DNA of 64,000 bases from Deltaproteobacteria bacterium (lineage in GTDB: Bacteria; Desulfobacterota; Anaeroferrophillalia; Anaeroferrophillales; Tharpellaceae). The stretch is from positions 1 through 64,000 of the forward strand of contig JAFGVI010000124.1 in assembly GCA_016938065.1 (NCBI GenBank), read 5' to 3'. Numbering within the stretch: the first letter of the stretch is position 1; each line of letters opens with the position of its first letter. This document shows, piece by piece, positions 53,354 through 54,319 of the stretch. The translations under genes were made by a program, and so were the position numbers. A model generated the notes under the pieces. The model was not told where the DNA came from. It saw only the letters and a list, made by a program, of their open reading frames with translations, and did no database searches.

Positions 53354-53470
53354 CCCGCCCAACTGCAAGAAAGAACTCTCAGCCCCTCCAGACAAGAAAA
53401 ATTCATCCTTTTTGCATACTTTTGTCTTATTGCTTTCTCGAATATATCGGCTATTGTCCAAGATGTATAG

Positions 53471-53556
53471 AATGTGAAAGCCACACCCGGCGAGAGCCGG
53501 GGTCGGAACACCACGGGTCTTGCTTCGGAAATGCAAAAAGACAGCCGGGTTGCCTC
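53471..53556 (+). ncRNA. c-di-GMP-I (GEMM-I) type riboswitch aptamer
   Basis: AATGTGAAAGCCACACCCGGC-GAGA-GCCGGGGTCGGAACACCACGGGTCT...GACAGCCGGGTTGCC: GNRA-capped hairpin, CCACGGGUCU...ACAGCCGGGUUGCC 3' half; by-eye alignment keeps the equivalents of Vc2 G20, A47 and C92. Confidence 0.72.
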
Positions 53557-53583
53557 CTGTTTCAAGGGTAATCCGGCTTTTTT
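53543..53583 (+). terminator. Intrinsic terminator overlapping the 3' strand of the riboswitch aptamer
   Basis: AGCCGGGTT ... AATCCGGCT followed by TTTTTT. Confidence 0.75.
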
Positions 53584-53623
53584 CTATGTTCAATCAAGAG
53601 GAGGGGGGGAGAAGGAGAAAAAG

Positions 53624-54319
53624 ATGAAAAAAATTGTGTTCGCAACCATCATGCTTTTCTGGCTCAATTCATTAACCTTCGCGGCCGCCATCAACTTAAG
53701 TAGCTGGACGGCCTCGGGTGATGGCACTTGGGTTCTAAGTGGCGATGCCGCCAGCGTTCTGCAAACCAAAAATGGAGAACCAACCTATTTTGTCAGCGAC
53801 ACAAACTACATCAACACACTTTTCGACGGCAGTTTCGGGGTCGAAACCAGTAGCGATGATGATTTTATCGGCTTCGTCTTCGGCTATACCGGCCCGACTG
53901 ACTATATCCTCTTTGACTGGAAACAAGCTGCACAAACAACCAGCAACGGAACAGCGGCTGAAGGTTTCACCCTCTCTCAGATCACAGGAAGCGACGTTAA
54001 TCTCTGGGGCCACGCCGGCGCTGATATCAGCGTTCTCGACACGCTCTACGGTTCGGATAAGGGCTGGGCCGACAACACAGTCTACGACTTCACTCTCGAT
54101 TACAGCACTACCGGAATAACCATCAAAATTGACGGAGGTACAATCTTCGACATTAGCGGAAGCTTTGGTGACGGCAAGTTCGGATTTTACAACTACTCGC
54201 AGGAGAAAGTCAGATACGCGGCATTTGACGAAACCACAACGGTCCCCATCCCCGGAGCCGTCTGGCTGTTCGGCAGTGGCCTGCTCGGACTTTTCGGCCT
54301 GCGCCGCAAGAAAAGATAG
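53624..54319 (+). CDS. PEP-CTERM sorting domain protein
   Basis: Signal peptide MKKIVFATIMLFWLNSLTFAAA; C terminus VPIPGAVWLFGSGLLGLFGLRRKKR; start revised inward from the listed 53474. Confidence 0.88.
   Translation: MKKIVFATIMLFWLNSLTFAAAINLSSWTASGDGTWVLSGDAASVLQTKNGEPTYFVSDTNYINTLFDGSFGVETSSDDDFIGFVFGYTGPTDYILFDWKQAAQTTSNGTAAEGFTLSQITGSDVNLWGHAGADISVLDTLYGSDKGWADNTVYDFTLDYSTTGITIKIDGGTIFDISGSFGDGKFGFYNYSQEKVRYAAFDETTTVPIPGAVWLFGSGLLGLFGLRRKKR

What the first reader, a model, noticed from the sequence alone, without database searches (positions are those of the whole stretch)
53471..53583. c-di-GMP-I riboswitch whose aptamer 3' strand is also the terminator arm, controlling a PEP-CTERM protein
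Seen: a GEMM-like aptamer (GAGA-capped hairpin; CCACGGGTCT...GACAGCCGGGTTGCC) is followed by AATCCGGCT-TTTTTT. The arm AGCCGGGTT lies inside the aptamer core and pairs with AATCCGGCT to make a terminator, so aptamer and terminator exclude each other. Inference: ligand binding prevents termination, an ON switch for the PEP-CTERM gene at 53624.
Basis: partly seen in the sequence, partly recalled or inferred. Interest (0 to 1): 0.75.

Follow-up and report, generated by a model that had tools for sequence, protein, structure and literature searches.

The report
c-di-GMP ON riboswitch with overlapping terminator
A textbook RNA sensor for the bacterial signal c-di-GMP sits in front of a gene for an exported surface protein and most likely lets that gene be transcribed only when the signal is present; the design is known, and it recurs throughout this uncultured genus.

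Summary
Confirmed. Window 53470-53557 is a c-di-GMP-I (GEMM-I) aptamer: RF01051, 56.3 bits against a gathering score of 35, E 2.5e-8, the only Rfam hit in the window. In 46 of 47 U-tract-containing riboswitches of the same genus the equivalent C is paired to G in the same way, with some compensatory changes. Folding predicts that the terminator wins by about 14 kcal/mol without ligand once its 3' arm is complete. This supports a kinetic ON switch like pilM of Geobacter metallireducens (PMC9262584). The specificity base is G (53480), so the ligand is most likely c-di-GMP, not cGAMP (PMC6456294). The gene (53624-54319) encodes a signal peptide, a thrombospondin C-terminal domain and a PEP-CTERM tail; the genome has an exosortase. 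c-di-GMP riboswitches before PEP-CTERM genes are already listed for Methylophaga (PMC12530212). A good new member of a known kind; nothing was tested at the bench.

The parts
53470..53557 (+). c-di-GMP-I (GEMM-I) riboswitch aptamer
   Evidence: RF01051, 56.3 bits, E 2.5e-8, model 1-87/87
53480..53480 (+). G at the ligand-specificity position (Vc2 G20; A14 in the G. metallireducens cGAMP riboswitch)
   Evidence: Rfam position 11 in the alignment; the numbering correspondence rests on PMC6274999 (helix and junction limits) and on recalled sequences; A20G switches a cGAMP riboswitch to c-di-GMP (PMC6456294)
53481..53506 (+). P1b (CC/GG) and P2 with GAGA tetraloop
   Evidence: alignment and pair list (P1b 53481-53482 with 53505-53506; P2 53486-53491 with 53496-53501)
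53510..53550 (+). P3 helix of the aptamer (CCACGGGTCT ... GACAGCCGGGT)
53553..53553 (+). C equivalent to Vc2 C92 / pilM C75, which pairs with the ligand; paired to G53568 in the terminator
   Evidence: role of C75 from PMC9262584 and PMC6274999
53543..53555 (+). terminator 5' arm, identical with the aptamer 3' strand
53566..53578 (+). terminator 3' arm
53578..53583 (+). run of six T (U tract); its first T is paired in the stem
   Evidence: sequence
53599..53618 (+). purine-rich stretch with likely ribosome-binding site(s), AGGAGG and GGAG
   Evidence: sequence; inference
53624..54319 (+). target gene, 231 aa: signal peptide, thrombospondin C-terminal domain (TSP_C), PEP-CTERM-like tail VPIPGAVWLFGSGLLGLFGLRRKKR
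   Evidence: PF05735 62.1 bits; TIGR02595 15.3 bits against cutoff 16 and other PEP-CTERM models over the tail; thrombospondin-1 in the PDB, E 4e-14

Best explanation
A transcriptional ON riboswitch for c-di-GMP. RNA polymerase first makes the aptamer (53470-53557). If c-di-GMP binds, G53480 and C53553 hold the two guanines (inferred from known structures) and P3 stays closed, so the 3' strand is not free; polymerase passes the U tract and transcribes the TSP_C/PEP-CTERM gene. Without ligand, the 3' strand 53543-53555 pairs with 53566-53578 as it emerges, opens P3, takes C53553 into the stem and forms a 13-bp terminator. The exported protein would then be made at high c-di-GMP, as expected for a biofilm or cell-surface protein. 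Shown by computation: aptamer, overlap, conservation, energies, domains. Inferred: ligand identity, binding, termination and biological role.
For: RF01051 hit. Terminator stem and its energy. 46 of 47 U-tract-containing, non-identical genus loci pair at least 9 of the 13 core positions, and in 46 the C92 equivalent is paired to G; the first pair is A-T in 36 and G-C in 8, with C-G/T-A and G-C/A-T exchanges at other pairs. Stepwise folding: aptamer-constrained ensemble about 4-6 kcal/mol above the free ensemble until about 53573, then 14-15 above once the 3' arm is complete. pilM has the same mutually exclusive design, ON, with C75-G102 capture (PMC9262584). A20G converts cGAMP to c-di-GMP selectivity (PMC6456294). 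Own genome: 17 GGDEF matches, 15 readable, 14 of them with the canonical Asp; one exosortase. A sister copy in the genome (L001) has the same design.
Against: No binding or termination data. Secondary-structure energies ignore tertiary contacts and ligand. The ligand-free fold already favours non-aptamer structures by about 4-6 kcal/mol, so the ligand must act in a short time window. No P1 helix is detectable, which may weaken binding. No forward sigma-70-type promoter was found upstream. The pairs come from per-sequence folds, which favours pairing somewhat. The TIGR02595 score for the tail is just under the curated cutoff.
Confidence: 0.86

Rival explanations
1. Same ON mechanism, but the ligand is 3',3'-cGAMP (GEMM-Ib).
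For: The scaffold (CC/GG at P1b, GGAAAGCC, GACAGCCGGGTTGCC) resembles Geobacter GEMM-Ib (recalled); the genome has one GGDEF protein with the Hypr-type Ser plus GGDEF motif (L100, GHQVGSQLI...GGDEF), a signature of cGAMP synthases (PMC6456294).
Against: The specificity base is G in all three copies of this genome; A20G in Gmet_0970 makes c-di-GMP the ligand (PMC6456294). Among sampled genus genomes the Ser-type enzyme was found only here and in G008, neither of which has a detected A20 riboswitch.
Confidence: 0.08
2. An OFF switch: ligand-bound aptamer and terminator coexist, as in C. difficile Cd1.
For: c-di-GMP-I riboswitches of both signs exist (PMC9262584).
Against: The terminator uses the aptamer's own 3' strand and its ligand-contacting C, so both cannot form together; no separate antiterminator strand is seen.
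Confidence: 0.02
3. A degenerate riboswitch followed by an ordinary attenuator with no ligand response.
For: No detectable P1; aptamer not favoured without ligand.
Against: Ligand-contacting bases kept, high covariance-model score, and genus-wide conservation of both aptamer and overlapping terminator.
Confidence: 0.04

Closest known systems
pilM cGAMP riboswitch (GEMM-Ib), Geobacter metallireducens
   Same: Aptamer and terminator mutually exclusive; terminator captures the ligand-pairing C; ON (PMC9262584)
   Different: pilM senses cGAMP (A at position 20) and has an annotated P1 strand; here position 20 is G and no P1 is detectable
c-di-GMP-I riboswitch class (RF01051; Vibrio cholerae Vc2)
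   Same: Aptamer family and ligand-contacting G and C
   Different: P1b is CC/GG instead of GC/GC; terminator-based expression platform
c-di-GMP riboswitches upstream of PEP-CTERM and thrombospondin genes, Methylophaga nitratireducenticrescens GP59
   Same: Same pairing of sensor and target gene types (PMC12530212, Table 4)
   Different: Different phylum; expression platform not described in the passages read; thrombospondin and PEP-CTERM are listed there as separate genes

Membership tests
c-di-GMP-I riboswitch (RF01051) | Covariance-model score above gathering | tested here: met
   56.3 against 35 bits, full length
c-di-GMP-I riboswitch (RF01051) | Ligand-contacting bases G20, C92 and A47 equivalents present | tested here: met
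   G53480, C53553, A53507 in the alignment; numbering transfer partly from memory
c-di-GMP-I riboswitch (RF01051) | Binds c-di-GMP | not testable with these tools
   needs in-line probing or ITC
GEMM-Ib cGAMP riboswitch | A at position 20 | tested here: not met
   G53480
pilM-type ON switch | Terminator 5' arm is the aptamer 3' strand and captures the ligand-pairing C | tested here: met
pilM-type ON switch | Ligand raises read-through | not testable with these tools
   needs single-round transcription
PEP-CTERM / exosortase substrate | C-terminal motif, hydrophobic helix and basic end scoring above the curated TIGR02595 cutoff | tested here: inconclusive
   Tail VPIPGAVWLFGSGLLGLFGLRRKKR has the motif, helix and basic end, but TIGR02595 scores 15.3 bits against cutoff 16
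PEP-CTERM / exosortase substrate | Exosortase encoded in the same genome | tested here: met
   PF09721, 238.5 bits

The most novel reading that the evidence does not exclude
In Ca. Tharpella a large set of P1-less GEMM-I ON switches with nearly the same platform is split by one base (42 G20, 9 A20) into c-di-GMP and cGAMP (or dual-ligand) regulons, mostly of exported proteins, and the A20 members occur in genomes where no Ser-type (Hypr) GGDEF was found.
Probability: 0.2. Interest if true: 0.5.

Novelty: new member of a known kind. Interest (0 to 1): 0.27.

Why it matters
It links c-di-GMP directly to transcription of an exosortase-type exported protein in an uncultured lineage, and the genus offers about 50 natural variants of one compact switch (G20 or A20, with or without terminator) for testing how ligand choice and termination evolve. 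As a single finding it is ordinary.

Tried and rejected
Sigma-70-type promoter upstream: none on the forward strand. P1 helix: longest pairing runs in the genus match shuffled flanks, so no P1 is claimed. Link between A20 riboswitches and Hypr GGDEF: not seen. The key GEMM-Ib papers (PMC4418906 and the PNAS companion) are not held. TSP_C homologue with the same riboswitch elsewhere in the genus: none; the domain is found in only one other of 58 relatives, G038, which had no RF01051 hit.

Full report
Observation. The window holds one Rfam match at gathering threshold: RF01051, c-di-GMP-I, 53470-53557 (+), 56.3 bits, E 2.5e-8, model 1-87. Downstream, 53543-53555 (AGCCGGGTTGCCT) and 53566-53578 (GGGTAATCCGGCT) form 13 pairs, followed by a T run at 53578-53583. 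The fold is -21.0 kcal/mol against -10.9 +- 2.6 in shuffles; the pair count alone is reached by 68 of 200 shuffles, so for one locus the energy, not the count, is the evidence.

Comparative evidence. The genome (2.7 Mb draft, 89% complete) has three RF01051 matches. Nine of 12 other genomes of the genus carry the family. I read 51 genus loci; 50 are distinct, 47 have a U tract in range, and 46 of those pair at least 9 of 13 core positions and pair the C92 equivalent with G. The exception is L003 of this same genome, which has no terminator and has a likely ribosome-binding site right behind the aptamer, so it may act on translation. The first stem pair is A-T in 36, G-C in 8 and G-T in 2 loci, and other pairs exchange C-G for T-A or G-C for A-T; these counts come from per-sequence folds, so they lean towards pairing.

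Mechanism. Stepwise folding shows the aptamer-constrained ensemble about 4-6 kcal/mol above the free ensemble until about 53573, and 14-15 above once the stem is complete. Tertiary contacts and ligand are not in this model. The design is that of pilM of G. metallireducens, where aptamer and terminator are mutually exclusive, the terminator takes C75, and the switch is ON (PMC9262584). Here the equivalent is C53553 with G53568. Pairing upstream of J1/2 is no better than shuffled, so there is no detectable P1.

Ligand. Position 20 is G53480. An A20G change turns the Gmet_0970 cGAMP riboswitch into a c-di-GMP switch (PMC6456294). The genome has 17 GGDEF matches; of 15 whose motif could be read, 14 have the canonical Asp and one (L100) has Ser with GGDEF, the Hypr signature. 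A close homologue of it was found only in G008 (81% identity). In the genus 42 loci have G and 9 have A at position 20; no Ser-type GGDEF was seen among the hits read from the A20 genomes. c-di-GMP is therefore the best guess for this window.

Target. The gene 53624-54319 has TSP_C (PF05735, 62.1 bits), similarity to thrombospondin in the PDB and a PEP-CTERM tail just below the TIGR02595 cutoff. One exosortase is in the genome. Other riboswitches in the genus mostly precede proteins with signal-peptide-like starts (judged by eye), some with PEP-CTERM, VPLPA-CTERM or IPTL-CTERM tails; PEP-CTERM-like targets recur in G019 and G027, from other families of the phylum.

Known or new. c-di-GMP riboswitches in front of four PEP-CTERM-type genes and one thrombospondin gene are listed for Methylophaga nitratireducenticrescens GP59 (PMC12530212). 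The switch type and the gene pairing are thus both known. Verdict: real, interpretation supported, new member of a known kind.

Noticed in passing
L035, L036, L038, L039, L047, L056, L060, L070, L080: Nine of 51 genus riboswitches have A instead of G at the specificity position, as in cGAMP riboswitches, including one before a PEP-CTERM gene (L047), in genomes without a detected Ser-type GGDEF.
   Followed up: partly
Rfam positions 15 and 34 (window 53484 and 53503): In the loop between P1b and P2 the A/A combination of the consensus is replaced across most of the genus by C/U (or C/C, U/U); the two positions change together in nearly all loci.
   Followed up: partly
L100, G000 contig C32: Membrane GGDEF protein with Ser at the Hypr selectivity site, a candidate cGAMP synthase; an 81% identical homologue was found only in G008.
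   Followed up: partly
L040, L057, L079 and L041, L058: c-di-GMP-I riboswitches in front of oleate hydratase and Hsp20-type small heat shock genes (NCBIfam checked for L040 and L041; the others by similar sequence), unusual targets beside the many exported proteins.
   Followed up: no
L003:1501-1610: RF01051 match at the threshold (35 bits) without terminator and with a likely ribosome-binding site directly behind it; possible translational control.
   Followed up: no
53624-54319: Thrombospondin-type C-terminal domain, best known from animals, in a bacterial PEP-CTERM protein; the domain was found in only one other of 58 relatives.
   Followed up: partly
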